Positions 6,123 through 61,665 of a DNA stretch of 64,000 bases are shown one piece after another. The stretch is from Microvelia longipes (taxonomy: Eukaryota; Arthropoda; Insecta; Hemiptera; Veliidae): the NCBI GenBank assembly GCA_018340805.1, contig JACMZG010001863.1, positions 22,043,049 to 22,107,048 on the forward strand, given 5' to 3'. Positions within the stretch are counted from its first letter, which is position 1. Every line of letters starts with the position of its first letter. The notes beneath the pieces were generated by a model. It saw nothing but the letters and a program-made list of their open reading frames with translations, was not told where the DNA came from and made no database searches. The translations under genes were made by a program, and so were the position numbers.

Positions 6123-25767
<19,645 letters not shown>

Positions 25768-30739: not shown

Positions 30740-31567
30740 TGCAAAGATAATTCGGGAAGACGAAGCTGGTGTTATTATTTTAAACCATTTTACGGGGCTC
30801 TCTGAAGACAAATGTAAATTAAGAGCTTGTTTTTAAAAAATGTAGTATTATTTAATAGAGCTCAGGCTTTATTGCAAATACGGGTTTAAGGTCGTATTTG
30901 CATTTAAGGATTTTATTAAAAACTAATGTCTATTAAGTTGCCAGTAGTGTATATATAATATAATATATAATGTAATATAAGCTATATTAACATCTATTCA
31001 ATGTTTTATATTAACTCTTGAGAATAATCCTAACTCTAACAACTCGATTTAATCTAAGTTAAGTCCAAATAACTACCTCAAAAGATTTTGTATATAATTT
31101 AACTTAATATTCAATTTAAAAGTGAATTGAAAATCTTCGATGTAACCCAAGCTAATTGTATAAGCTTAAGTGCTGAAAATACGCTAGGAACAAAGTTGTG
31201 CGGTACTTGAACCACAAAAATACGCCCACAAAAATTACAACAATACAGTAGAATGTTTACAAAACTAGGTCATAGATAAAGTTTCATCTTCATGCGTCGT
31301 CACGATGTTGATCCCTCACGAGTTTCCCTCGGGACACAATGTCTTAAAATTATTTACAAAATATCTTTTCTAGATCATCTTATTACTATGATCAACTTAG
31401 CTAACTGTTTATAAATCATATTTCATTAAGGACTGCTACATTGTTAGCAATATTTCAACTTAACTGCCTACGGCTGTTTGCTCACTTTATTAAAAATCTA
31501 AAACGTAAATCAACATTTTAAACACAGTTCGAATTTAAAAATAATATACTTAAAGCAAAATTAAATT
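30740..31567. other. Intergenic, unassigned
   Basis: AT-rich sequence between the hairpin minisatellite and the Penelope-like element. No genes or repeats recognised. Confidence 0.35.
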
Positions 31568-31615
31568 AATCGAAGAATCAGCTACCGTCGATACTTGCTG
31601 TTGGATATAAATATC

Positions 31616-31652
31616 CCTGGACCGGTTTCGGCATAACGCCATCATCAGCAGG
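31616..31652 (-). ncRNA. Hammerhead ribozyme in left Penelope arm
   Basis: Same 37 bases as at 32864-32900 on the opposite strand: the core CTGATGA is the complement of 31642-31648 and cleavage is expected after the base paired to 31620. In the element's coding orientation this is the downstream copy. Confidence 0.75.
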
Positions 31653-31783
31653 CGGGGCAACACTCGAGCTCTCAACTAATAAAGTTAAATCAGTGATTAA
31701 CTTCTAGTCTCAATGAGCACGACGAGCCCTCTGAAGATAAGGGAGGAAGTAGGAAAGGGTTTATAAAGGGAATGTGTACTGAG

Positions 31784-32680
31784 TCAAGGCCGTGACCCTG
31801 AGTAGTCAGGTGTGTGAGTCAGGTGTGCGTGTGAGCCATCTGGCGTTATGATGCTTTGTGTCTTTATTATGATGTGTACCGTGTCATGGTTTTCCCGTTT
31901 TCGTTTTTTGTCAAGTGTTGGTTTGAGTACCGAAAAAGTAATGTCCGAATTGAAAGTAAGTTGTTCGTTAATAATTGTCTTGTCAGTAATTCTGTGTTTG
32001 TATATTTCTAGTCTTTCAAGTACGTCAAGTTTAGGTCCTTTTGATTGTTTGTGTAGCAGTTTCATAGAGTTTGACATTGAATCTGGTTCGTGTCCGTGTG
32101 TGCGAAGGTGGTTGGCAAAGTTAGAATCTGATTTATCTTTTATGAATGAGCGTAATTGCTCTTTATACCTAGTGTTTAGAGTACGATATGTTCTACCTAT
32201 ATAATTTTGTTGGCAATCTTTGCAAGTTATCTTGTAAACTCCACTTTGGTTATATAAATTTGAGTTATTTGGGTTATTGGAGTTATGTGCTAGTTTGTTA
32301 CCTATGTTATTGTTTGTTTTGAAGGCTGTTGCTAAGTTGTGTTTATTTAAGAAGTTTGCAAGTCTGTAAGTTTCTTTCCCTACGTAGGTTAAAGCTGTCC
32401 ATTGTCTGTTAGTATCTGTCTCGTCTGTTGTGGTGTTGGCAGAGCCGTTTTTCCGTTTGTATTGTGTGATGAGTTTGTCGATGTCGGTCCTATTGTATCC
32501 GTTCCTGTCTGCTATGTCGTATATCGTATTAAGTTCTTTTTTGTAGTTGTCAGGTGTCATAGGTATGTTGTGAAGTCTATGTATCATGGATCTGTAGGCT
32601 GCTAATTTGTGTTGCATTGGGTGGTTTGAAGTTGCGTGTATTGTGTGGTCGGTTGCTGTTGGTTTTCTGTATATGCTAAA
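31784..32680 (-). pseudogene. Penelope-like polyprotein C-terminus with GIY-YIG endonuclease
   Basis: Open from 32680 to stop at 31786-31784. The upstream part, FSIYRKPTATDHTIHATSNH, is the last piece of the Penelope reverse transcriptase; the catalytic RT motifs are gone. Counting from the Met at 32617 (277 residues to the stop), the endonuclease starts at about residue 126. It has GVY 126-128, C132 and C135, YIGRT 139-143, R150 in NTRYKEQ, and H170/H174. The Cys and His residues match the zinc-binding insertion of Penelope GIY-YIG domains. The fragment cannot mobilise alone because the RT is missing; the endonuclease reading frame itself is intact. Confidence 0.88.
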
Positions 32681-32863
32681 GTCACACGCACACCTGACTC
32701 ACACACCTGACTACTCAGGGTCACGGCCTTGACTCAGTACACATTCCCTTTATAAACCCTTTCCTACTTCCTCCCTTATCTTCAGAGGGCTCGTCGTGCT
32801 CATTGAGACTAGAAGTTAATCACTGATTTAACTTTATTAGTTGAGAGCTCGAGTGTTGCCCCG

Positions 32864-32900
32864 CCTGCTGATGATGGCGTTATGCCGAAACCGGTCCAGG
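32864..32900 (+). ncRNA. Hammerhead ribozyme in right Penelope arm
   Basis: Helix I is CCTG (32864-32867) with CAGG (32897-32900). The core is CTGATGA (32868-32874). Helix II is GGC and GCC around GTTAT, with one T (32875) before it. GAA is at 32887-32889; ACCGGT (32890-32895) is a loopless palindromic helix III. Cleavage is expected after C32896. Loopless helix III motifs in Penelope elements are thought to work as dimers. Confidence 0.75.
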
Positions 32901-32948
32901 GATATTTATATCCAACAGCAAGTATCGACGGTAGCTGATTCTTCGATT

Positions 32949-33974
32949 GCTTCTTCAACTTGCGGTAAATACAACCTTTTTAATTTCAAAATTAAATTAA
33001 ATGTTGAGAAATATTTACATTGACGACTTGATCTATAATTTTATGATAAACTTAAACAAATTAAGTTTAATTTTTTAATTAAACAAATTAAAAATATTTT
33101 TTTCTTTGTACTTTTCCTAACCTCATAACTAACACTGAAAAAATTATGAAAATATTTTAGATGATTTATAAATATTATACAATTTTATAAGATCTTGGTC
33201 GTATAGGACGTAACTTTCATAAATATATAAAGTAATCTGAACCAATAAACTGTAATTTAAATTGACACATTTTAACAATATTTTAAATTAATTAGAAATT
33301 AGTAATTAAATCATATCAGAAGTCGAAGGTTGTTCTTGTGTTTATCTTCTTTTTTCCAATTATTATATCTGTTTTTTTTTATTTTACCTATACATTTTCC
33401 ATAGCAGTGAATGCTAACTTACATTAGAGTTTTAGGGAATTTTCAATACATCAAGAGTATGTGGAAGGTGTAGAGAAAGGACGTGGGGGACAAATTCTAC
33501 TTGGACTTCTAATTTCAAAAATACATACATCCTCGATATGTGTGTGTGTGCGCGAGTGTTTGTGTGATTGTGTGTGAGTCAGAGAGTCACTAGATGTTTT
33601 TCTGTCAGACGGTAACTCTCGCAGACATTTTAAGAAATTAAGAAAACAAATTAAGCTCGTGGATGCCTCGGAACTTATTAATTGTGAAAAGTGTATGACG
33701 TCATTAATCTATTTTGACGCAATCGAACTTTTTAAAAAATCGGTGTAGATAGGGTAAGAGTAATTGTAGTAGGGTAGTTGTCGAATATGGTGTACTCAAT
33801 ATGGATTTGGTGTTCTGGATCTATTCAAACCGGTTTATGCTCAACGGGACTCACCGTTTAACCGGCAAAGGCAAAAACCATAGGAAAAACGACATCCTAT
33901 AACATATTTTTAGGGTGTACTGCCACTAAAAAACACTTTAAGTGCAAAATTTTTATTTCCCATTATATTAGCTA
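32949..33974. other. Intergenic, unassigned
   Basis: AT-rich. 33540-33720 has a GTGTGTGT-rich block and AAAGTGTATGACGTCATTAA, reminiscent of the 5S-like family middle part, but too diverged to call. No genes seen. Confidence 0.35.
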
Positions 33975-34194
33975 TTTTTTTCTTTTCCTCATATATACCG
34001 TAGGTATATAGAAAAAGTATTGTCTTTAGACAAAAAATTTGATACTGGGATGTCACTGCAACTATCCGTTTCAGGTGTTTTAAGACCTCCTAAGCAGTTT
34101 TCACTAAGTTGTCTGTCTGTAAGTGTGTGTGGTTCATCAGTATTAGTTAAACTTTTATCATATGACTTGAGTACTTTTTTTAACCTTTACTTAA
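33975..34194 (+). repeat. 5S-like dispersed repeat, copy 7, left part
   Basis: TTTTCCTCATATATACCGTAG, GGTATATAGAAAAAGTATTG, CTATCCGTTTCAGGTG and AGTTGTCTGTCTGTAAGTGTG in family order. It is interrupted at 34195 by the satellite array. A 5S-like segment reappears at 41040-41125 on the far side. Confidence 0.72.
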
Positions 34195-34364
34195 TATATC
34201 ATTTGATACTACCGAGTTTTGCAAAACATGAATAGTTGACACAATATAATTGTGCGAGAGACACCTAGGAAATGTAAACAAGCAAAATGCAATGCTACAT
34301 CTGGGAACTGTTCCATCATTCGACATTCGTCATCATTGATGGCTCGACATAATGTCATGTCCCA

Positions 34365-34405
34365 CTCTGTTTCGTTACGTCTAACTCATCAGGGCGCCGA
34401 CAGAG
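34365..34405 (-). ncRNA. Hammerhead ribozyme of the satellite (first + unit)
   Basis: On minus: CTCTGT (34405-34400) pairs with ACAGAG (34370-34365) as a 6 bp helix III. C at 34399 is the cleavage base (GTC). GGCGCC (34398-34393) is helix I. CTGATGA (34392-34386) is the core. GTTA-GACG-TAAC is a 4 bp helix II with a GACG loop, followed by GAA. All conserved core positions are present. Helix I is a loopless palindrome, so it could form only between two molecules or by a different pairing. The motif recurs about every 316 bases in the array. Confidence 0.8.
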
Positions 34406-37400
34406 CCTGAACTCACTCTGACCTTCAATTAATTCCGAAGAATATAATGTGAAGTACTTACCAGAGACGAGCGGTGCTCTCTTACCGCCATCATGCATGG
34501 CAAGCAAAACATATATCATTTGATACTACCGAGTTTTGCAAAACATGAATAGTTGACACAATATAATTGTGCGAGAGACACCTAGGAAATGTAACAAGCA
34601 AAATGCAATGCTACATCTGGGAACTGTTCCATCATTCGACATTCGTCATCATTGATGGCTCGACATAATGTCATGTCCCACTCTGTTTCGTTACGTCTAA
34701 CTCATCAGGGGCCGACAGAGCCTGAACTCACTCTGACCTTCAATTAATTCCGAAGAATATAATGTGAAGTACTTACCAGAGACGAGCGGTGCTCTCTTAC
34801 CGCCATCATGCATGGCAAGCAAAACATATATCATTTGATACTACCGAGTTTTGCAAAACATGAATAGTTGACACAATATAATTGTGCGAGAGACACCTAG
34901 GAAATGTAACAAGCAAAATGCAATGCTACATCTGGGAACTGTTCCATCATTCGACATTCGTCATCATTGATGGCTCGACATAATGTCATGTCCCACTCTG
35001 TTTCGTTACGTCTAACTCATCAGGGCGCCGACAGAGCCTGAACTCACTCTGACCTTCAATTAATTCCGAAGAATATAATGTGAAGTACTTACCAGAGACG
35101 AGCGGTGCTCTCTTACCGCCATCATGCATGGCAAGCAAAACATATATCATTTGATACTACCGAGTTTTGCAAAAACATGAATTGACACAATATAATTGTG
35201 CGAGAGACACCTAGGAAATGAAACAAGCAAAATGCAATGCTACATCTGGGAACTGTTCCATCATTCGACATTCGTCATCATTGATGGCTCGACATAATGT
35301 CATGTCCCACTCTGTTTCGTTACGTCTAACTCATCAGGGCGCCGACAGAGCCTGAACTCACTCTGACCTTCAATTAATTCCGAAGAATATAATGTGAAGT
35401 ACTTACCAGAGACGAGCGGTGCTCTCTTACGCCATCATGCATGGCAAGCAAAACATATATCATTTGATACTACCGAGTTTTGCAAAACATGAATAGTTGA
35501 CACAATATAATTGTGCGAGAGACACCTAGGAAATGTAACAAGCAAAATGCAATGCTACATCTGGGAACTGTTCCATCATTCGACATTCGTCATCATTGAT
35601 GGCTCGACATAATGTCATGTCCCACTCTGTTTCGTTACGTCTAACTCATCAGGGCGCCGACAGAGCCTGAACTCACTCTGACCTTCAATTAATTCCGAAG
35701 AATATAATGTGAAGTACTTACCAGAGACGAGCGGTGCTCTCTTACCGCCATCATGCATGGCAAGCAAAACATATATCATTTGATACTACCGAGTTTTGCA
35801 AAACATGAATAGTTGACACAATATAATTGTGCGAGAGACACCTAGGAAATGTAACAAGCAAAATGCAATGCTACATCTGGGAACTGTTCCATCATTCGAC
35901 ATTCGTCATCATTGATGGCTCGACATAATGTCATGTCCCACTCTGTTTCGTTACGTCTAACTCATCAGGGCGCCGACAGAGCCTGAACTCACTCTGACCT
36001 TCAATTAATTCCGAAGAATATAATGTGAAGTACTTACCAGAGACGAGCGGTGCTCTCTTACCGCCATCATGCATGGCAAGCAAAACATATATCATTTGAT
36101 ACTACCGAGTTTTGCAAAACATGAATAGTTGACACAATATAATTGTGCGAGAGACACCTAGGAAATGTAACAAGCAAAATGCAATGCTACATCTGGGAAC
36201 TGTTCCATCATTCGACATTCGTCATCATTGATGGCTCGACATAATGTCATGTCCCACTCTGTTTCGTTACGTCTAACTCATCAGGGCGCCGACAGAGCCT
36301 GAACTCACTCTGACCTTCAATTAATTCCGAAGAATATAATGTGAAGTACTTACCAGAGACGAGCGGTGCTCTCTTACCGCCATCATGCATGGCAAGCAAA
36401 ACATATATCATTTGATACTACCGAGTTTTGCAAAACATGAATAGTTGACACAATATAATTGTGCGAGAGACACCTAGGAAATGTAACAAGCAAAATGCAA
36501 TGCTACATCTGGGAACTGTTCCATCATTCGACATTCGTCATCATTGATGGCTCGACATAATGTCATGTCCCACTCTGTTTCGTTACGTCTAACTCATCAG
36601 GGCGCCGACAGAGCCTGAACTCACTCTGACCTTCAATTAATTCCGAAGAATATAATGTGAAGTACTTACCAGAGACGAGCGGTGCTCTCTTACCGCCATC
36701 ATGCATGGCAAGCAAAACATATATCATTTGATACTACCGAGTTTTGCAAAACATGAATAGTTGACACAATATAATTGTGCGAGAGACACCTAGGAAATGT
36801 AACAAGCAAAATGCAATGCTACATCTGGGAAACTGTTCCATCATTCGACATTCGTCATCATTGATGGCTCGACATAATGTCATGTCCCACTCTGTTTCGT
36901 TACGTCTAACTCATCAGGGCGCCGACAGAGCCTGAACTCACTCTGACCTTCAATTAATTCCGAAGAATATAATGTGAAGTACTTACCAGAGACGAGCGGT
37001 GCTCTCTTACCGCCATCATGCATGGCAAGCAAAACATATATCATTTGATACTACCGAGTTTTGCAAAACATGAATAGTTGACACAATATAATTGTGCGAG
37101 AGACACCTAGGAAATGTAACAAGCAAAATGCAATGCTACATCTGGGAACTGTTCCATCATTCGACATTTCGTCATTGATGGCTCGACATAATGTCATGTC
37201 CCACTCTGTTTCGTTACGTCTAACTCATCAGGGCGCCGACAGAGCCTGAACTCACTCTGACCTTCAATTAATTCCGAAGAATATAATGTGAAGTACTTAC
37301 CAGAGACGAGCGGTGCTCTCTTACCGCCATCATGCATGGCAAGCAAAACATATATCATTTGATACTACCGAGTTTTGCAAAACATGAATAGTTGACACAA

Positions 37401-39244
37401 TATAATTGTGCGAGAGACACCTAGGAAATGTAACAAGCAAAATGCAATGCTACATCTGGGAACTGTTCCATCATTCGACATTCGTCATCATTGATGGCTC
37501 GACATAATGTCATGTCCCACTCTGTTTCGTTACGTCTAACTCATCAGGGCGCCGACAGAGCCTGAACTCACTCTGACCTTCAATTAATTCCGAAGAATAT
37601 AATGTGAAGTACTTACCAGAGACGAGCGGTGCTCTCTTACCGCCATCATGCATGGCAAGCAAAACATATATCATTTGATACTACCGAGTTTTGCAAAACA
37701 TGAATAGTTGACACAATATAATTGTGCGAGAGACACCTAGGAAATGTAACAAGCAAAATGCAATGCTACATCTGGGAACTGTTCCATCATTCGACATTCG
37801 TCATCATTGATGGCTCGACATAATGTCATGTCCCACTCTGTTTCGTTACGTCTAACTCATCAGGGCGCCGACAGAGCCTGAACTCACTCTGACCTTCAAT
37901 TAATTCCGAAGAATATAATGTGAAGTACTTACCAGAGACGAGCGGTGCTCTCTTACCGCCATCATGCATGGCAAGCAAAACATATATCATTTGATACTAC
38001 CGAGTTTTGCAAACATGAATAGTTGACACAATATAATTGTGCGAGAGACACCTAGGAAATGTAACAAGCAAAATGCAATGCTACATCTGGGAACTGTTCC
38101 ATCATTCGACATTCGTCATCATTGATGGCTCGACATAATGTCATGTCCCACTCTTTCGTTACGTCTAACTCATCAGGGCGCCGACAGAGCCTGAACTCAC
38201 TCTGACCTTCAATTAATTCCGAAGAATATAATGTGAAGTACTTACCAGAGACGAGCGGTGCTCTCTTACCGCCATCATGCATGGCAAGCAAAACATATAT
38301 CATTTGATACTACCGAGTTTTGCAAAACATGAATAGTTGACACAATATAATTGTGCGAGAGACACCTAGGAAATGTAACAAGCAAAATGCAATGCTACAT
38401 CTGGGAACTGTTCCATCATTCGACATTCGTCATCATTGATGGCTCGACATAATGTCATGTCCCACTCTGTTTCGTTACGTCTAACTCATCAGGGCGCCGA
38501 CAGAGCCTGAACTCACTCTGACCTTCAATTAATTCCGAAGAATATAATGTGAAGTACTTACCAGAGACGAGCGGTGCTCTCTTACCGCCATCATGCATGG
38601 CAAGCAAAACATATATCATTTGATACTACCGAGTTTTGCAAAACATGAATAGTTGACACAATATAATTGTGCGAGAGACACCTAGGAAATGTAACAAGCA
38701 AAATGCAATGCTACATCTGGGAACTGTTCCATCATTCGACATTCGTCATCATTGATGGCTCGACATAATGTCATGTCCCACTCTGTTTCGTTACGTCTAA
38801 CTCATCAGGGCGCCGACAGAGCCTGAACTCACTCTGACTTCAATTAATTCCGAAGAATATAATGTGAAGTACTTACCAGAGACGAGCGGTGCTCTTTACC
38901 GCCATCATGCATGGCAAGCAAAATATTCATTGATACTACCGCCCTGATGAGTAGACGTAACGAAACAGAGTGGGACATGACATTATGTCGAGCCATCAAT
39001 GATGACGAATGTCGAATGATGAACAGTTCCCAGATGTAGCATTGCATTTTGCTTGTTACATTTCCTTGGTGTCTCTCGCACAATTATATTGTGTCAACTA
39101 TTCATGTTTTGCAAAACTCGGTAGTATCAAATGATATATGTTTTGCTTGCCATGCATGATGGCGGTAAGAGAGCACCGCTCGTCTCTGGTAAGTACTTCA
39201 CATTATATTCTTCGGAATTAATTGAAGGTCAGAGTGAGTTCAGG

Positions 39245-39285
39245 CTCTGTCGGCGCCCTGATGAGTTAGACGTAACGAAACAGAG
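39245..39285 (+). ncRNA. Hammerhead ribozyme of the satellite (inverted unit)
   Basis: CTCTGT 39245-39250, cleavage C 39251, GGCGCC 39252-39257, CTGATGA 39258-39264, helix II 39265-39276, GAA 39277-39279, ACAGAG 39280-39285. The next unit has GGTGCC in place of GGCGCC, which keeps pairing as a G-U, while the unit near 40515 has lost two bases of helix I and would be weakened. Confidence 0.8.
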
Positions 39286-40989
39286 TGGGACATGACATTA
39301 TGTCGAGCCATCAATGATGACGAATGTCGAATGATGGAACAGTTCCCAGATGTAGCATTGCATTTTGCTTGTTACATTTCCTAGGTGTCTCTCGCACAAT
39401 TATATTGTGTCAACTATTCATGTTTTGCAAAACTCGGTAGTATCAAATGATATATGTTTTGCTTGCCATGCATGATGGCGGTAAGAGAGCACCGGTCGTC
39501 TCTGGTAAACACTTCACATTATATTCTTTCAGAATTAATTGAAGGTCAGAGTGAGTTCAGGCTCTGTCGGTGCCCTGATGAGTTAGACGTAACGAAACAG
39601 AGTGGGACATGACATTATGTCGAGCCATCAATGATGACGAATGTCGAATGATGGAACAGTTCCCAGATGTAGCATTGCATTTTGCTTGTTACATTTCCTA
39701 GGTGTCTCTCGCACAATTATATTGTGTCAACTATTCATGTTTTGCAAAACTCGGTAGTATCAAATGATATATGTTTTGCTTGCCATGCATGATGGCGGTA
39801 AGAGAGCACCGCTCGTCTCTGGTAAGTACTTCACATTATATTCTTCGGAATTAATTGAAGGTCAGAGTGAGTTCAGGCTCTGTCGGCGCCCTGATGAGTT
39901 AGACGTAACGAAACAGAGTGGGACATGACATTATGTCGAGCCATCAATGATGACGAATGTCGAATGATGGAACAGTTCCCAGATGTAGCATTGCATTTTG
40001 CTTGTTACATTTCCTAGGTGTCTCTCGCACAATTATATTGTGTCAACTATTCATGTTTTGCAAAACTCGGTAGTATCAAATGATATATGTTTTGCTTGCC
40101 ATGCATGATGGCGGTAAGAGAGCACCGCTCGTCTCTGGTAAGTACTTCACATTATATTCTTCGGAATTAATTGAAGGTCAGAGTGAGTTCAGGCTCTGTC
40201 GGCGCCCTGATGAGTTAGACGTAACGAAACAGAGTGGGACATGACATTATGTCGAGCCATCAATGATGACGAATGTCGAATGATGGAACAGTTCCCAGAT
40301 GTAGCATTGCATTTTGCTTGTTACATTTCCTAGGTGTCTCTCGCACAATTATATTGTGTCAACTATTCATGTTTTGCAAAACTCGGTAGTATCAAATGAT
40401 ATATGTTTTGCTTGCCATGCATGATGCGGTAAGAGAGCACCGCTCGTCTCTGGTAAGTACTTCACATTATATTCTTCGGAATTAATTGAAGGTCAGAGTG
40501 AGTTCAGGCTCTGTCGCCCTGATGAGTTAAACGTAACGAAACAGAGTGGAACATGACATTATGTCGAGCCATCAATGATGACGAATGTCGAATGATGGAA
40601 CAGTTCCCAGATGTAGCATTGCATTTTGCTTGTTACATTTCCTAGGTGTCTCTCGCACAATTATATTGTGTCAACTATTCATGTTTTGCAAAACTCGGTA
40701 GTATCAAATGATATATTTTTTGCTTGCCATGCATGATTGCGGTAAGAGAGCACCGCTCGTCTCTGGTAAGTACTTCACATTATATTCTTCGGAATTAATT
40801 GAAGGTCAGAGTGAGTTCAGGCTCTGTCGCGCCCTGATGAGTTAGACGTAACGAAACAGAGTGGGACATGACATTATGTCGAGCCATCAATGATGACGAA
40901 TGTCGAATGATGGAACAGTTCCCAGATGTAGCATTGCATTTTGCTTGTTACATTTCCTAGGTGTCTCTCGCACAATTATATTGTGTCAA

Positions 40990-41125
40990 CTTTAATTAAT
41001 AAATAAGAACACCACGTTTCATTTTAATACAACAAGTATATCTATGATTTTTGTTGGATCATAAAAGTTAAGCCGCATGAAGTGTTGTTAATGCCTGGAT
41101 GGATGACCGCTAAAAATTAAATGTA
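40990..41125 (+). repeat. 5S-like dispersed repeat, right part beside the array
   Basis: TTTTTGTTGGATCATAAAAG, TTAAGCCGCATGAAG and GCCTGGATGGATGACCGC are the 5S box A to box C segment, in the same orientation as 33975-34194. Confidence 0.68.
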
Positions 41126-41699: not shown

Positions 41700-44205
41700 A
41701 TAATATTATTATTTGTTGAACACTTGTACAAACCTTCAAGCTACTAAACAAATAAAGACACTCCGTCTTAGTTTTTTTATTACTCCAATTTAGGTTTGTC
41801 ACATTAGGTTAATAATATTCGAGGAATGAATGTAATGTCATATGTAGGGAAAACAGAAGAAAAATAATACAAAATTATATTAACTTCGAGCTTACCTGAC
41901 GTACATAGAACTGTAATCAAAACTTCTCCCCAAACTTGTTTTATTATTAGTTATTGTTAATCTAGATTTTTTCACCATTCTCATTCGAAACTATATTTTA
42001 ATCTTCTCACATTTTTTCAATTTAGTCTTTGTCATTTTTTCCTCAACAATATCTTCTACTTAAACTGAATTTGAATAGGATCAATTTGGATTATCAAATG
42101 AGGCAATACTTAAGTGTTCTATCTACCTGCATTTCAAGATTTTTTTAATCATTAAGTTTTTTTTAAATGGGTTTTATCTATTAAAAAATGTTAATGGATT
42201 TTTAGAATATTGTAAAATTATTTTTTTTTAAATTATGTCTGCATTTTTGTTATATAACAATAAAATTAAAAACGCAAAGGGTCAATGATCTAGCCGGTCC
42301 TACGAATTAGAGTTTAGATATAAGAAACCGCTAGTTTCTGACATTTTACTATTAGGACATTGTTGACAATTTGGAATTAAAACCGGTTAAAAAAGATTTA
42401 AAAAAAACGGTTTAAAAAAAATTCACCATCAAGCATCAGGAAAGGTATCCTCGATCTTTGCCTCTGCTTATGGTGGAACTGATAAGCTAGCACAAGTTAG
42501 GAATTTTTTCATTGTGTTTGGCATACCGTTTTTATGGCAGATATCACTAGAGCCAACTAGTATGTGATTTCTGAACATGATTCCTTACTTTATCAAAAAC
42601 AAAAATAAATTATTTAGTTTTTAAATAATAAGCAGTCAGAGCACTTAATTGATAAACATTGCTTCAGTTGACTAAAGACAGAGTCTTCGCCTATAAGCTT
42701 AAAGTTCAGTTAAAGTTTAAGCCTACACATAAGCCTAAAAGTTACAGCTTCAGCCTATACCAAGTCTAAAGCGTTACAGCCTAAAGTTCAGTTATAGTCT
42801 AACCCTATAAGTTAAGGCTTCCGTCTATTTTAAGTCTCTACTATAAATGCCTAGGCCTTTACCAGAATTTTTGTAGTCAAGTCTCTGACTGCAGAGAAGG
42901 GCAACTTTTGGTGGATCCCACATGCATATTGACTAAAAAGGTCTATAAATAGGCTTATCATTTTAATCAAACAAACATGGTTTAACCAAAATAAATCATT
43001 TGGGTTTCGTGCAATAAAAGATCAAAAATTCAAACCTGACTTAACATATGCAAACCCATGATTAAATTTAACAATATGATTCGTTGCAATTTAAATTATT
43101 CGTTTGAAGTTTCAATTTTTTTAATTCTTCTAGATTGTTCAATTTTAAACTAAATTATTTTTTTTATAAAGAATTAAAAAAATAATAATACTATATGGGA
43201 GCAATCCTGTTACTTGGTTAAATAAATATATTATGTTCCAGTCGATTTAATTAAAGCAAACGCTAGTCTTATTTTTTGTTTCAACCAAAATGGTTTGTAA
43301 TAATGTTATTATATCTTTATAAAATGTTTATCCTACGTAATATCACAGGAATAAGCCTAACTCAATCCTAAATCCTATTCTTGAATACAGTCCTAAGTGT
43401 ATCCTTCTATTTCGCTGATGATTTCATAAAATAATTAAGGTGATCTCAAATAAATTATAAAAAATTATTACAATAAATCCAAGGTTTTTCTTTCAATATC
43501 AATAACCTGCTTTAAAAGACACCAAAACAATAGACCGACTTCCTTATATAACTAAACGATTCACAAACGCAACAATTTTAATAATTCATTATCTAGATAT
43601 AGGACTACATGCTTGATTATTCATTCTGAATATAGATTCATGAATCTTGAGGTAATATGCATAATATTGCTTTGATTATATAGGCGGTATGAGCTACGTG
43701 AAACCACGAAGGATTCAATAACTCACTTCCTTCAACTACAAGTTCAAGGTGCAAAGATGTAGCCTTAACTTAAATAATTCTTTTCAATTGTAGGACTTTT
43801 TTATTTTCTTTTTTTATCAAATATGAGTTCAAATGTCACAAGGTCATATCCGTCTTTTTGTATTTTTTGGGTAACTTTTGAATGTTTTTTAAAGGATATT
43901 GATGATAGTACACGGTATAAAGCAAATCTTATTTAGCTTATGACGCTCGCGATAATATGTATAAGACCTCATGGATCAGCCCTGTGAAACTTAGCTTAAT
44001 TGTACAATAGTTCTATCCGACAGCAAGGCTAATTCATAATCTGATTCTGTTGTTGATTAATTAAATTATTTATTACCCTGGTACCTGACCTTAAATTTTT
44101 ATAACCTCCTTTAAAAGGCCCTCAAAGTCTTTACTTTTAGGTTTTAATTTTGGGACTTAATACCTTATTTGACCTAAAATGTGCAAAATTAACTTATATT
44201 ACTAG
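41700..44205. other. Intergenic, unassigned
   Basis: AT-rich. 42660-42860 is a degenerate minisatellite around AGCCTAAAGTTCAGTTATAGT. No genes recognised. Confidence 0.35.
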
Positions 44206-44209
44206 ATAG

Positions 44210-44565
44210 AGTTATATCAATTGATACCATCGAGTTTTGCAATAAAATGAATAGTTGACACAATATAATTGAGCGTGAGACACCTAGGAAATGTAACAAG
44301 CAAATAGCTTTGTTAAATCTGGGAACTGTACCATCATTTGACATTGATGATTATTGATGGCTCGACATAATGTCATGTCCTACTCTATTTCGTTACGTTA
44401 TCGGGGCGCTGACAGTGCCTGAACTCAACATTAAGTGAAGTATCTACAAGAGTCGAGCGATGCTCTCTTAATGTCATCATGCCCGACTAGTAAAACATGT
44501 ATAATTTGATACTACCGAATTATATTTCCTTACTGTCTCTCGCGCAATAATATTTTGTCTACTGG
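44210..44565. repeat. Solitary diverged copy of the 316 bp satellite element
   Basis: One + unit from TATATCAATTGATACCATCG, followed by a short inverted end (TTTCCTTACTGTCTCTCGCG, ending TTGTCTAC). The hammerhead segment is decayed: CTGATGA reads CCGATAA on minus and helix II is altered. Confidence 0.85.
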
Positions 44566-44917
44566 ATAGGACAACAGCAAACAGTTGAAGCTCTTTGATT
44601 TCAATTTTGATATTTATTTGATTTTGAAAGCTCTTTAATTTCATAATAAATACTAAGCTGTAAAACAAATTTGTTTAACGTCTGGAGGTCATAACTTTTT
44701 AATATTCGTTAAATTGTTAGTTAAAAGTTACGATGTATTTTTCGTTGCAAAAAGTGAGTTGAAGTAGTAACTATATTACTCTTATTTATTCAGTTATGTT
44801 TATAATTGCGTTGGTTCTACGCTGGCGATCATAACTTAAATTTAAGTGACCCTACAGTAATAAAGATTAATCTAAAATTACTCTGTTTAGTAAGATAACA
44901 AATTAGAGAATAATAAT
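44566..44917. other. Intergenic, unassigned
   Basis: AT-rich sequence between the solitary satellite copy and a SINE tail fragment. Nothing recognised. Confidence 0.35.
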
Positions 44918-45755: not shown

Positions 45756-46260
45756 ATTTGTAGACACTTTCTTGTAAACACTGTATCTTTCGAACGGATT
45801 AATATTTTTTAACCAAACTTGGTACAAAAATCAACCTTTGGAAGGACACGAACCCTATTGAAAACTAGGTTTTTGTGACGTCATTAACCCGGTTTGCTGA
45901 GTCAGCGAAATTTTCAAAAAATCTGCAAAATTCAGGGTTAATATTTTTTGCCGCGAAAAACATCAATATTTATGTTTTTTAAGACGCTGAATCGAATGAA
46001 ACTAGTCCGAAGTCGATACGACCACTTTAAGTTACCAAAAAGTCGAAAAAACCACAAAAATTATAGAAAACCAAAATTACGGTCGTTAAAAATAAATTTC
46101 GAGTAGGGTGTCGTTTTCAATGTTTTTTGGGCCTCTGAGTTGAATGCCAGTGGTCCGGAGTCAATACGGCCACTCAAACTCAGGGTACCTGGGTTCACAT
46201 CCTGGAAGGGTCGATAAGTTTTTATCGTTTTTTTTTACTTAATATAAGTTTACAACTAGA
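45756..46260 (+). repeat. Diverged dispersed repeat
   Basis: Contains TTGTGACGTCATTAACC, GAGTCAGCGAAATTTTC and TCGAATGAAACTAGTCCGAAG, blocks shared loosely with the 5S-like family and with 12040-12130 and 41270-41350. No 5S segment here. Confidence 0.5.
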
Positions 46261-46262
46261 AA

Positions 46263-46407
46263 ATAATTCTGGCGCGGTGGTCTGCATGTCGGGCGAATTT
46301 CCTTCGGATGCGAAAACTCAAACCCAGAGTACCTGGGTTCAAATCCTAGTAGGGACAATAATTTTTTATCGTTTTTTTTACCTAATATAAGTTTAGAACT
46401 AGAAAAT
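46263..46407 (+). repeat. Direct repeat with tRNA-like B box
   Basis: AATTCTGGCGCGGTGGTCTGC and GGGTTCAAATCC with TTTTTATCGTTTTTTTTAC recur: one copy ends at about 46263 and the next at 46408. The head looks tRNA-derived, with a weak A box. Confidence 0.5.
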
Positions 46408-46939
46408 AATTCTGGCGCGGTGGTCCGCATGTCGGGCGAATTTCATTTAGAATGCGTTTTCCGTGCTAAACAACCCATTTCTTGCTTATGCAAGAACCAT
46501 GCCCATTGTGTGGTTCCGGTTCATTCTTTAGAACCTAAGCAGTTACTCAATTGTCAAGCACTGCTCGCAACTCATTTTGTCTGTATTTTTCAAAGGAAAT
46601 GCGCTAAAACCTTTCAAGATAACTGACTAAGCTTAAAGATATGTAACTAAGCTTTAAACTAGTGCAAATAATAGTGCGTACTTCTAATTTTAAAGGCATA
46701 GTTTTGTACTACCAACTGGATAATTATGCGCATTTCCTTTGGAAAATACAGACTAGAGTAAACTGCTTAAATTGAGTAAATTTAAAATTGATAAATTGAG
46801 TAACTGCTTAGGTTCTAAAGCATGAACCGGAACCACGCAATGGGCATGGTTCTTGCATAAGCAAGAAATGAGTTGTTTAGCACGGAAACACGCATTCTAA
46901 ATGAAATTCGCCCGAGATGCGGACCATCGCGCCAGAATT
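46408..46939. mobile_element. Foldback MITE with about 170-200 base inverted arms
   Basis: The left arm AATTCTGGCGCGGTGGTCCGC, then ATGTCGGGCGAATTTCATTT and GAATGCGTTTTCCGTGCTAA, is mirrored at the right end (CCCGAGATGCGGACCATCGC and GCCAGAATT). No coding capacity. Confidence 0.85.
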
Positions 46940-59219: not shown

Positions 59220-61665
59220 TGGTAAGCCAACTATCCCAGATAGTAAGTACAGCATGTAAGCTCATGAGCAGTAAGTACTGCATGTAGCCAACAGTAAGTA
59301 CTGTCATTGTACCCAGCAGTAAGTACTGCATGGTAATCCAACAGAAGTACTGCATGTAGCTCAACAGTAAGTTACTGCACTAGCCCAGCAGTAAAGTACT
59401 GCATGTAGCCCAACAGTAAGTACTGCATGTAGCTCAACAGTAAGTACTGCACGTAGCCCAGCAGTAAGTACTGCATGTAGCCCAGCGTAAGTTTACTGCA
59501 CGTGCCTAGCAGTAAAGTACTGCATGTAGCGCCCAGCAGGTAAGTACTGCATGTAGCTCAGCAGTAAGTACTGCATTTGTTAGCCCAACAGTAAGTACTG
59601 GCACGTAAGCCAGCAGTAATACTGCATGTAGCCCAGCAGTAAGGTTACTGCATGGTAACCCAACAGTAAGTACTGCACGTAGCCAGCAGAAAGTAACTGC
59701 ATGTAACCCAAACAGTAAGTACTTGCACGTAGCCAGCAGTAGTACTGCATGTAACCCAACAGTAAGTACTGACGTTAGCCAGCAGTAAGTACTGCATGTA
59801 ACCCAACAGTAAGTACTGCATGTTAGCCCAGCAGTAAGTACTGCATGTAAACCTAAGCAGTAAGTACTGCATGTAGCTCAACAGTAAGTACTGCACGTAG
59901 CCCAGCAGTAAGTACTGCATGTAGCCCAGCAGTAAGTACTGCATGTAGCCCAGCAGTAAGTACTGCACGTAGCCTAGCAGTAAGGTATTGCATGTAGACC
60001 CAGCAGTAAAAGTTACTGCACGTAGCCCGCAGTAAGTACTGCATGTAGCCCAGCAGAGTAAGTACTGCATGTAACCCAACAGTAAGTACTGCATGTAGCT
60101 CAACAGGTAAGTACTGCATGTAGCCCAGCAGTAAGTACTGCATAGCCTAGCAGTAAGTACTGCATGTAGCCCAGCAGTAAGTACTGCACGTAGCCCAGCA
60201 GTAAGTACTGCATGTAACCCAACCCCAGTAAGGTAACTGCATGTAGCTCAACAGTAATACTGCACGTAGCCCAGCAGGGAAAGTACTGCATGTAGCCCAA
60301 CGTAGTAAGTACTGCACGTAGCCCAGCAGTAAGTACTGCATGTAGCCCAGCAGTAAGTACTGCATGTAACCCAACAGTAAGTACTGCATGTAGCTCAACA
60401 GGTAAGTACTGCACGTACCCAGCAGTTAAGTACTGCATGTAGCCCGCAGTAAGTACTGCATGTAGTCCTAGCAGTAAGTACTGCACGTAGCCCAGCAGTA
60501 AGGTACTGCATGTAGCCCAGCAGAAGTACTGCATGGTAGCTCAGGCAGAAGTACTGATGTAGCCCAACAGTAAGTACTTTGCACGTAGCAAACAGTAAGT
60601 ACTGCACGTAGCCAGCAGTAGTACTTGCCATTTGTAGCCCAGCAGTAAGTACGTGGCATGTAACCAAACAGTAAGTACTGGCAATGTATCCCAACTGAAA
60701 TTACTGCATGTAGGCTCAAACCAGTTAAGTACTGCAAGCGAGCCGAGTAAAAAGTACTTGCATGTAGCCCTAGCAGAGTACTGCAGGTGTAGGGCCCAGC
60801 AGTAAGTACTGACGTAGCCTAGCAGTAAGTATTGCATTGGCCCAGCAGGTAAGTACTTTGCCACGTAGCCCAGCAGTAAGTACGCATGTAGCCCAGCTAG
60901 TTAAGTTTCATGTAACCTAACAGTAAGTACTGCATGTAGCTCAACAGTAAGTACTGCACGTAGCCCAGCAGTAAGTACTGCATGTAGCCCAGCAGTAAGT
61001 TACTGCATGTAGCCAGCATAAGTAACTGCACTAGCTAGCAGTATAGTCTATTGTCATGTTAGCCCAGCAGTAAGTACTGCACGATAGCCCAGCAGGTAAG
61101 TACTGCATTGTAGCCCAGCAGTAAGTACTGCATGTAACCCAACAGGTAAGTACTGCATGGTAGCTCAACAGTAAGTTACTGCATGTTTAGCCCAGCAGTA
61201 AGTACTGCATGTAGCTCAGCAGTAAGTACTGCATGTAGCCCAGCAGTAAGTACTGCACGTATAGCCGCGAGGCAGTAAGTACTTGCATGTTACTCCAACG
61301 TAAGTACTGCATGTTAAGCTCAATACAGTAAGTACTGCACGTAGCCCAGGCAGTAAATTACTGCATGTAGGCCGAGCAGTCAAGTACTGCACGTAGCCCA
61401 GCAGTAAAGTACTGTCATGTAGCCCAGCAGTAAGGTACTGCATGTAGCCCAGGCAGGTAAGTACTGCACGTATTCCTAGCAGTAAGTACAATAGCCATGT
61501 AGCCCAAGCAGGTGTACTGCACGTAAGCCCAGCAGTAAGTAAACTGCATTGTAGCCCAGAGTAATACTGCAGGTAGCCTAGCAGTAAGTACTGCATGTTA
61601 GCCCAGCAGTAAGTACTGTCATTGTAGCCTAGCAGTAATACTGCATGTAGGCCTAGCAGTAAGTA
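59220..61665. repeat. 24 bp satellite array, about 100 copies
   Basis: Unit GTAGCCCAGCAGTAAGTACT plus GCAT. Common variants are GTAGCTCAACAG, GTAACCCAACAG and CGTAGCCTAGCAG. The pair GTAACCCAACAG then GTAGCTCAACAG recurs near 60070, 60220, 60370, 60912 and 61135, hinting at a higher-order period near 150 bases. Indels are very frequent. Leu/Tyr/Gln-rich frames on minus are translations of the repeat. Confidence 0.95.

What the first reader, a model, noticed from the sequence alone, without database searches (positions are those of the whole stretch)
34195..40989. Satellite whose every unit encodes a hammerhead ribozyme with a loopless helix I
On the minus strand of the + units (for example 34405-34365) and on + in the inverted units (39245-39285) the order is CTCTGT, C, GGCGCC, CTGATGA, GTTA-GACG-TAAC, GAA, ACAGAG. 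All conserved hammerhead positions are present, and helix III (6 bp) and helix II (4 bp) are perfect. The strands enter through helix III (type III layout), whereas animal hammerhead satellites and retrozymes known to me (schistosomes, cave crickets, newts) are mostly type I. Helix I is the palindrome GGCGCC without a loop, so activity would need two RNAs pairing, a mirror image of the dimer model for loopless helix III. The unit with GGTGCC keeps pairing, and the dead solitary copy at 44210 has lost the core. This predicts self-cleaving 316-base monomers and perhaps circular RNA.
Basis: partly seen in the sequence, partly recalled or inferred. Interest (0 to 1): 0.93.

Follow-up and report, generated by a model that had tools for sequence, protein, structure and literature searches.

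The report
Hammerhead satellite with Penelope-type insertion ends
A 6.8-kb block of repeats in what is probably an arthropod genome encodes a self-cutting RNA motif that seems able to work only when two copies pair, and its ends and target duplication look as if a Penelope-type retrotransposon copied it from RNA into the genome in one event.

Summary
The array has 22 hammerhead cores, one of them cut at an internal junction. Rfam's type III model (RF00008) matches 20 of 22 at E <= 0.0075 (16 at 37.0 bits) and a 21st at E 2.3; all are below the gathering score of 48.5, and helix I has no loop. The array is not a classical satellite. It is one 6,794-bp insertion (34196-40989) with an 11-bp target duplication; two paralogues of the flanking repeat carry the target once. 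It consists of two head-to-head arms of 316-nt units. The outer ends sit at two fixed points of the unit, 41 nt apart, and two other copies in the window use the same points within a few nt. All 34 variants are private, as after a single burst. This is the anatomy described for Penelope-like elements (PLEs): inverted arms, a 30-40 bp 'tail' on one arm, a short AT-rich duplication. A PLE with that anatomy lies 1.2 kb away, and its repeats carry what reads as a minimal hammerhead whose palindrome is in helix III. Best reading: a PLE-mobilised retrozyme with a type III hammerhead that works only as a two-unit complex. Cleavage, circles and the enzyme are untested.

The parts
34185..34195 (.). Left copy of the 11-bp target-site duplication, CTTTACTTAAT
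   Evidence: Coordinates and paralogue comparison; as good a match in 6 of 2000 random pairs
34196..40989 (.). E1, the whole insertion (6,794 bp): two head-to-head arms of 316-nt units
34196..38940 (-). Long arm, ribozyme sense on the minus strand: 15 cores; outer end at the tail end point (unit nt 202-204, counted from the predicted cleavage site), inner end at unit nt 184
38939..40989 (+). Short arm, ribozyme sense on the plus strand: 6 full cores plus one truncated at the junction (38944); outer end at unit nt 161-164, inner end at unit nt 3
40990..41000 (.). Right copy of the target-site duplication, CTTTAATTAAT (one mismatch to the left copy)
34364..34406 (-). Example type III hammerhead with loopless palindromic helix I (GGCGCC)
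   Evidence: RF00008, 37.0 bits, E 4.2e-5; below the gathering score of 48.5
39244..39286 (+). Example hammerhead in the inverted arm
   Evidence: RF00008, 37.0 bits
39561..39603 (+). Hammerhead with helix I GGTGCC (still self-pairing through G-U)
   Evidence: RF00008, 35.6 bits; sequence
38148..38190 (-). Hammerhead damaged in helix III (AC deleted)
   Evidence: RF00008, 22.9 bits, E 2.3; sequence
44210..44559 (.). E2, an older solitary copy with the same two end points and an inverted end; ribozyme core lost; possible duplication TACTAGATAG / TACTGGATAG at 44200-44209 and 44560-44569
   Evidence: as good a duplication in 0.036 of 2000 random pairs
20580..20690 (.). E3, a mini-copy made only of the two ends (tail end plus inverted end); no duplication found
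31557..33000 (.). Neighbouring Penelope-like element: inverted terminal repeats 31568-31834 and 32682-32948 (267 nt, 100% complementary), 39-bp tail 32949-32987, duplication AAAATTAAATTAA at 31557-31569 and 32988-33000
31784..32698 (-). 5'-truncated ORF of that element with a weak GIY-YIG endonuclease match
   Evidence: Pfam GIY-YIG E 0.017, 15.9 bits, below its cut-off of 22.6; of 19 homologues, 8 are annotated with PF00078 (RVT_1) and 2 with PF01541 (GIY-YIG); two of the 19 rescanned
32864..32900 (+). Minimal type I hammerhead-like motif in the element's terminal repeat: CCTG-CTGATGATGGCGTTATGCCGAAA-CCGGTC^CAGG, with loopless palindromic helix III ACCGGU and one extra T after the core; the same motif lies in the other arm (core start 31648, minus strand)
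   Evidence: Pattern scans, sequence; read by eye, no Rfam match

Best explanation
The block is a non-autonomous retroelement of the retrozyme kind. Its 316-nt RNA carries a type III hammerhead whose helix I is a loopless palindrome (GGCGCC). Inferred cycle: (1) read-through transcription of an array gives a multimeric RNA; (2) a single unit cannot close helix I, but two units pair through GGCGCC:GGCGCC, so multimers are cut after GTC while monomers, linear or circular, would be spared; (3) a Penelope-type protein nicks an AT-rich site with an 11-nt stagger and primes reverse transcription from both DNA 3' ends, starting at two fixed points of the RNA 41 nt apart, each at the 3' foot of a small hairpin; (4) both cDNAs run along a circular or multimeric template, giving 15 and 6.5 units, and are joined head to head. 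Shown: the motif, near-fixed ends in three copies, the target duplication of E1, the private-variant pattern, and the same anatomy in a PLE next to it. Inferred: cleavage, circularity, the identity of the enzyme, and the two-unit activity.
For: Motif; chance control 0 of 35. Two-unit (substrate plus enzyme strand) hammerhead is the minimum-energy cofold. Fixed ends: unit nt 202-204 on one side and 160-164 on the other in E1, E2 and E3. The hairpins end 0-5 nt before those points. E1 duplication: as good a match in 6 of 2000 random pairs; two paralogues of the flanking repeat carry the target once, with weak homology continuing to its left (as good in 10 and 9 of 500 shuffles). Private variants: 34 of 34 events distinct across both arms (also 18 units). 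Neighbouring PLE with inverted arms, 39-bp tail on one arm and 13-bp AT-rich duplication. Published PLE facts: inverted pLTR, optional 31-bp tail on one arm, 8-10 bp duplications, pLTRs sufficient to move other DNA (PMC3846280; passages, discussion); both DNA strands cut and extended, two start sites bracketing the 30-40 bp tail, start in a stem-loop, AT-rich targets (PMC11167929, main text). Polarity fits: the ribozyme strand is the template strand in both arms. The short arm's inner end lies 2 nt from the predicted cleavage site (chance about 7 in 316, noticed after the fact).
Against: The unit has no sequence similarity to the neighbouring PLE's terminal repeat plus tail (as good in 0.385 of 200 shuffles), so that family need not be the helper. 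E3 shows no target duplication; the E1 and E2 duplications have one mismatch each. The paralogues of the E1 site differ from it by about 30 nt just left of the target. Two complete motifs cofold best into a non-hammerhead duplex (-32.0), and ViennaRNA does not favour the hammerhead in a three-unit transcript (helix II probability 0.09-0.17). All Rfam scores are below the gathering score. Variation in the array shows no constraint on the motif. In the one PLE studied in vitro, ribozyme mutants inserted as well as wild type and no RNA-seq reads began or ended at the cleavage site (PMC11167929), so a hammerhead is not required for that reaction. Three copies only, all from one 64-kb window; the rest of the genome could not be searched. 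No RNA data.
Confidence: 0.6

Rival explanations
1. A non-autonomous Helitron/Helentron-type element whose core is a tandem repeat, as described for oyster satellites, with sub-terminal inverted repeats and a hairpin near the right end.
For: Fixed ends with one inverted sub-terminal repeat and a hairpin near the right terminus; satellite arrays inside such elements are in print (PMC7492417, search listing only).
Against: E1 has an 11-bp target duplication, whereas Helentrons are recalled to insert without one. The long inverted arm of 6.5 units and the private variants of both arms are not explained.
Confidence: 0.1
2. A foldback or TIR DNA transposon (for example Mutator-like, recalled to make 8-11 bp duplications) whose long inverted repeats contain the tandem units; the hammerhead is incidental to movement.
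For: Long inverted arms with internal tandem units; duplication of about 10 bp.
Against: The two termini are different sequences: one arm has about 41 nt that the other lacks, in all three copies. A transposase was not sought properly: Pfam was run on three of the ten listed ORFs only.
Confidence: 0.08
3. An ordinary satellite array expanded by unequal exchange, with a hammerhead that is a passive relic.
For: Core positions vary as freely as the rest inside the array; one copy (E2) has lost the core; the fold is not favoured in long transcripts.
Against: None of 34 variants is shared between units or arms; bounded insertion with a target duplication; ends shared with two other loci.
Confidence: 0.12
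4. LINE-type (twin-primed) insertion of a multimeric retrozyme RNA, not PLE-type.
For: Retro-insertion with target duplication and inverted arm; LINEs are named alongside PLEs as candidate helpers (PMC7229834 discussion passage).
Against: The second start point is fixed within a few nt in three copies; in LINE twin priming the inversion point is recalled to vary.
Confidence: 0.1

Closest known systems
Metazoan non-LTR retrozymes (coral, mussel, axolotl; PMC7229834, passages and section 13)
   Same: Tandem units of 150-450 bp (here 316), low GC (here 0.42), one hammerhead per unit, target duplication longer than 4 bp
   Different: Those carry type I hammerheads; here type III with a loopless helix I. 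Their mobilising machinery is unknown, with PLEs proposed; here the ends have PLE anatomy
Newt/axolotl satellite hammerheads and PLE hammerheads that act as dimers
   Same: A palindrome replaces a hairpin loop so that two RNAs must pair
   Different: There the weak, palindromic helix is helix III of a type I ribozyme (PMC7229834 passages; PLE case from the title of Lunse 2017 and recall); here it is helix I of a type III ribozyme
Penelope-like elements (Penelope/Poseidon; PMC3846280 passages and discussion, PMC11167929 main text)
   Same: Inverted arms, tail of about 30-40 nt on one arm, short AT-rich duplication, two fixed start points
   Different: No coding sequence; many tandem units per arm; different sequence
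Plant LTR retrozymes
   Same: Type III hammerhead, circular RNA cycle
   Different: Plant elements have LTRs, PBS, PPT and 4-bp duplications (PMC7229834, PMC11722881 passages); their helix I has about 6 bp and a 6-8 nt loop (PMC7936874 passage)
Discontinuous Clec2 hammerhead of mammals (PMC6155905 passage)
   Same: Atypical type III in an animal, strands far apart
   Different: Found in Clec2 genes with a very large helix I, not a repeat family

Membership tests
Hammerhead ribozyme (type III, RF00008) | Complete conserved core CUGANGA...GAA plus NUH cleavage site | tested here: met
   cleavage triplet GTC
Hammerhead ribozyme (type III, RF00008) | Score at or above Rfam's gathering cut-off (48.5 bits) | tested here: not met
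   Best 37.0 bits; the whole model is matched, but with no nucleotides in the helix I loop and four fewer in the loop II region than the consensus
Hammerhead ribozyme (type III, RF00008) | Helix I closed by a loop that can contact loop II | tested here: not met
   GGCGCC has no loop; two units are needed
Hammerhead ribozyme (type III, RF00008) | Self-cleavage | not testable with these tools
   Needs in vitro transcription
Metazoan retrozyme | Tandem units of 150-450 bp, low GC, hammerhead per unit | tested here: met
   316 bp, GC 0.42; 20 of 22 cores matched at E <= 0.0075, a 21st at E 2.3
Metazoan retrozyme | Type I hammerhead | tested here: not met
   Type III layout
Metazoan retrozyme | Abundant circular RNA | not testable with these tools
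   No RNA data
Penelope-like element | RT and GIY-YIG ORF | tested here: not met
   No stop-to-stop ORF of 120 aa or more within the array
Penelope-type insertion (mechanism, not membership) | Inverted arms, tail of 30-40 nt on one arm only, short target duplication | tested here: met
   E1: inverted arms, 41 nt, 11 bp; E2 partly (duplication 0.036); E3 without duplication
Plant LTR retrozyme | LTRs, PBS, PPT, 4-bp duplication | tested here: not met
   Duplication of 11 bp; PBS, PPT and LTRs were not searched for separately
Helentron/HINE | Insertion without target duplication (recalled) | tested here: not met
   11-bp duplication

The most novel reading that the evidence does not exclude
Penelope-type machinery copies a circular hammerhead RNA from both DNA ends at once, round and round, so that a head-to-head 'satellite' of more than twenty near-identical units is born in one insertion; and the RNA is guarded by a mirror-image dimer hammerhead (palindrome in helix I, type III) that cuts only multimers and spares single circles.
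Probability: 0.4. Interest if true: 0.9.

Novelty: new variant of a known kind. Interest (0 to 1): 0.78.

Why it matters
A review states that animal retrozymes show no motif that tells which retrotransposon moves them (PMC7761336, section 9), and PLEs were only proposed (PMC7229834 discussion passage). Here the insertion itself carries the published PLE fingerprint beside an actual PLE, which makes the question testable by counting ends and duplications genome-wide. It would also explain how some satellite arrays start: in one reverse-transcription event, not by slow expansion. The ribozyme would show that the dimer trick, known for helix III, also exists for helix I.

Tried and rejected
Ligation-scar idea: variants seemed to cluster at the predicted cleavage site (4 of 32 internal events in 6 nt, binomial 0.003), but the scan statistic is 0.23-0.49 and a second GGCG site has 3 events, so this is not claimed. 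Descent of the unit from the neighbouring PLE's terminal repeat: no similarity. Stable rod-like circle: circular fold z = -1.8 on the ribozyme strand and -1.7 on the other, so weak. Constraint on the core: none seen inside the array. Exact copies of the core in viral contigs: 0. Host identity: protein hits only suggest an arthropod (beetle names; aphid, fly, spider, flea beetle and also frog names). Hammerhead in the 349-bp dimer at 24735: none by pattern. Literature: seven of nine full-text searches bear on prior reports; they listed 14 of 14, 17 of 17, 15 of 23, 15 of 7,400, 15 of 34, 12 of 104 and 15 of 21 papers. In those listings, and in the passages I opened, I saw no report of a type III hammerhead with a loopless palindromic helix I or of PLE ends on a retrozyme; most listed papers were not opened. 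Two key papers on PLE hammerheads (Lunse 2017; Cervera 2014) are not held and are cited from reference lists and recall.
Full report
OBSERVATION. The window holds two abutting 316-bp arrays, 34194-38941 and 38940-40991, in opposite orientation. Every unit carries a hammerhead core on the same strand of the unit. 22 cores are present: 21 found, plus one cut by the internal junction at 38944. Rfam's type III model matches 20 of the 22 at E <= 0.0075 (16 at 37.0 bits; 35.6, 35.2, 32.3 and 31.7 for four with lesions), one with a helix III deletion at 22.9 bits and E 2.3, and not the junction core. None reaches the gathering score of 48.5; the alignment has no nucleotides in the helix I loop and four fewer than the consensus in the loop II region. 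Outside the array, a scan for CTGANGA followed by helix II of at least 3 bp and GAA found four sites, two of which are the PLE motif described below. Among 35 contigs holding a similar core by chance in viral (22) and prokaryote (13) collections, 0 of 35 have a palindromic helix I and 0 of 35 have helix II of 4 bp or more; one has an 8-bp helix III.

HELIX I. GGCGCC lies directly between the cleavage site (GTC) and CTGATGA. A hairpin with no loop cannot form. For a single 43-nt motif the best fold is not a hammerhead (-11.2 kcal/mol, against -7.0 for a hammerhead without helix I). The strand GCUCUGUC-GGCGCC of one unit with the core strand of another has the full hammerhead as its minimum-energy fold (-20.6), and the palindrome duplex alone is worth -11.7. 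Two complete motifs, however, cofold best into a symmetric non-hammerhead duplex (-32.0) (all). In a 948-nt three-unit transcript the hammerhead is not favoured: helix II probability is 0.09-0.17, and forcing it costs 3.2 kcal/mol (two-unit form) or 4.9 (local helices II and III) of about 298. The two-unit model is therefore plausible but not shown.

THE ARRAY IS AN INSERTION. The flanks of the array belong to a dispersed repeat. Joined, they read ...ACCTTTACTTAATAAATAAG..., and two paralogues in the window read CCTTTACGTAATAAATAAG (about 57730) and ACCTTTACCCAATAAATAA (about 5021, minus strand), with one copy of the target. To the right of the target the homology continues. To the left it resumes only after a length difference of about 30 nt and is weak (as good in 10 and 9 of 500 shuffles). 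E1 therefore spans 34196-40989 between an 11-bp duplication (34185-34195, 40990-41000). In 2000 random pairs of positions, as good a duplication occurs in 0.003; for the older copy E2 (44210-44559) the value is 0.036; E3 (20580-20690) has none (0.75).

FIXED ENDS. On the unit numbered from the predicted cleavage site, the left end lies at nt 202-204 and the inverted right end at nt 160-164 in all three copies. The hairpins GUAUC-AAAU-GAUAU (nt 189-202) and GCACAAU-UAU-AUUGUGU (nt 143-159) end 0-5 nt before these points. One arm thus has about 41 nt that the other lacks. E1's long arm has 15 cores, its short arm 6 plus a truncated one. E1's short arm ends internally 2 nt from the predicted cleavage site (chance about 7 in 316, noticed after the fact); the long arms of E1 and E2 both end near nt 180-186.

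ONE BURST. Aligning both arms to the tandem consensus gives 34 variant events; all 34 are distinct, none recurs in another unit (23 indels, 11 substitutions). An earlier alignment of the 18 units that could be cut out whole agrees. Two of 34 events fall in the 22-nt core (2.4 expected) and 8 of 34 in the 41-nt motif (4.4 expected): no constraint since insertion. Some variants may be sequencing errors; this cannot be told here.

THE NEIGHBOUR. At 31557-33000 lies a Penelope-like element: inverted repeats 31568-31834 and 32682-32948, 267 nt and 100% complementary; a 5'-truncated ORF with a weak GIY-YIG match (E 0.017, below cut-off), of whose 19 homologues 8 are annotated with RVT_1 and 2 with GIY-YIG (two rescanned); a 39-nt extension on one arm; and the duplication AAAATTAAATTAA. 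Its repeats contain CCTG-CTGATGATGGCGTTATGCCGAAACCGGTC^CAGG, which reads as a minimal type I hammerhead with a loopless palindromic helix III, ACCGGU, and one extra T after the core. This was read by eye and Rfam does not list it. The repeat has no sequence similarity to the 316-nt unit.

MECHANISM. Published PLE anatomy: an inverted pLTR next to the element, an optional 31-bp tail on one arm, 8-10 bp duplications, head-to-head arms, and pLTRs enough to move a host gene (PMC3846280: passages, discussion). A purified PLE protein cuts and extends both DNA strands, starts reverse transcription inside the RNA, in a stem-loop, at two sites that bracket a 30-40 bp tail, and prefers AT-rich targets (PMC11167929, main text). 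E1 matches these features, and its ribozyme strand is the template strand in both arms. I infer that a PLE-type enzyme copied a multimeric or circular retrozyme RNA from both DNA ends. Against a role for the ribozyme in that step: in the same study ribozyme mutants inserted normally, the ribozyme needed protein to cut, and no reads began or ended at the cut site. The PMC3846280 authors prefer antisense self-priming for such structures; that variant is not excluded. The long arms need either a circle or a long multimer as template; the data do not decide.

NOVELTY. Animal retrozymes in the papers seen carry type I hammerheads (PMC7229834: abstract, passages and section 13); dimer activity there concerns helix III (same paper; PMC6155905 passages). 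Type III motifs in animals are known outside retrozymes (PMC7936874 passages; PMC6155905). Of nine full-text searches, the seven on prior reports list nothing that by title or start of abstract describes the present architecture; several lists are short extracts of long ones, most listed papers were not opened, and two key papers are not held. I therefore call it a new variant of a known kind.

LIMITS. One window, three copies, no genome (genome search did not complete, 11 tries), no RNA, host known only by protein hits as probably an arthropod.

Noticed in passing
window 31557-33000: A recent-looking Penelope-like insertion with 100% identical inverted repeats, a 39-nt tail on one arm and a 13-bp target duplication; its repeats carry a minimal type I hammerhead-like motif with palindromic helix III.
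   Followed up: yes
window 20580-20690: A mini-element made only of the two ends of the 316-bp element, with no ribozyme; lies about 85 bp after a 52-base A run.
   Followed up: partly
window 15448-16341 (+): A 297-aa ORF with 60 homologues in the search (named ones include aphids, a fruit fly, a spider, a frog, a flea beetle), no significant Pfam domain; possibly a mobile-element or multi-copy gene.
   Followed up: partly
window 59242-61665: A 24-bp minisatellite of about 97 copies, open over long stretches in the minus strand.
   Followed up: no
window 46172-46444: Two tandem 143-bp units with a tRNA-like B-box stretch (GGTTCAAATCC, read by eye), possibly a SINE.
   Followed up: no
window 24735-25438: A tandem dimer of a 349-bp unit, 96% matching; no hammerhead core found in it by pattern.
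   Followed up: partly
unit nt 315-4 and 226-229 of the 316-bp array: Both GGCG sites collect more variants than average (4 and 3 of 32); not significant by scan statistic, cause unknown.
   Followed up: partly
window 34125-34184: The left flank of E1 is about 30 nt shorter next to the target than two paralogues of the same host repeat; may be a small deletion made at insertion or repeat variation.
   Followed up: partly
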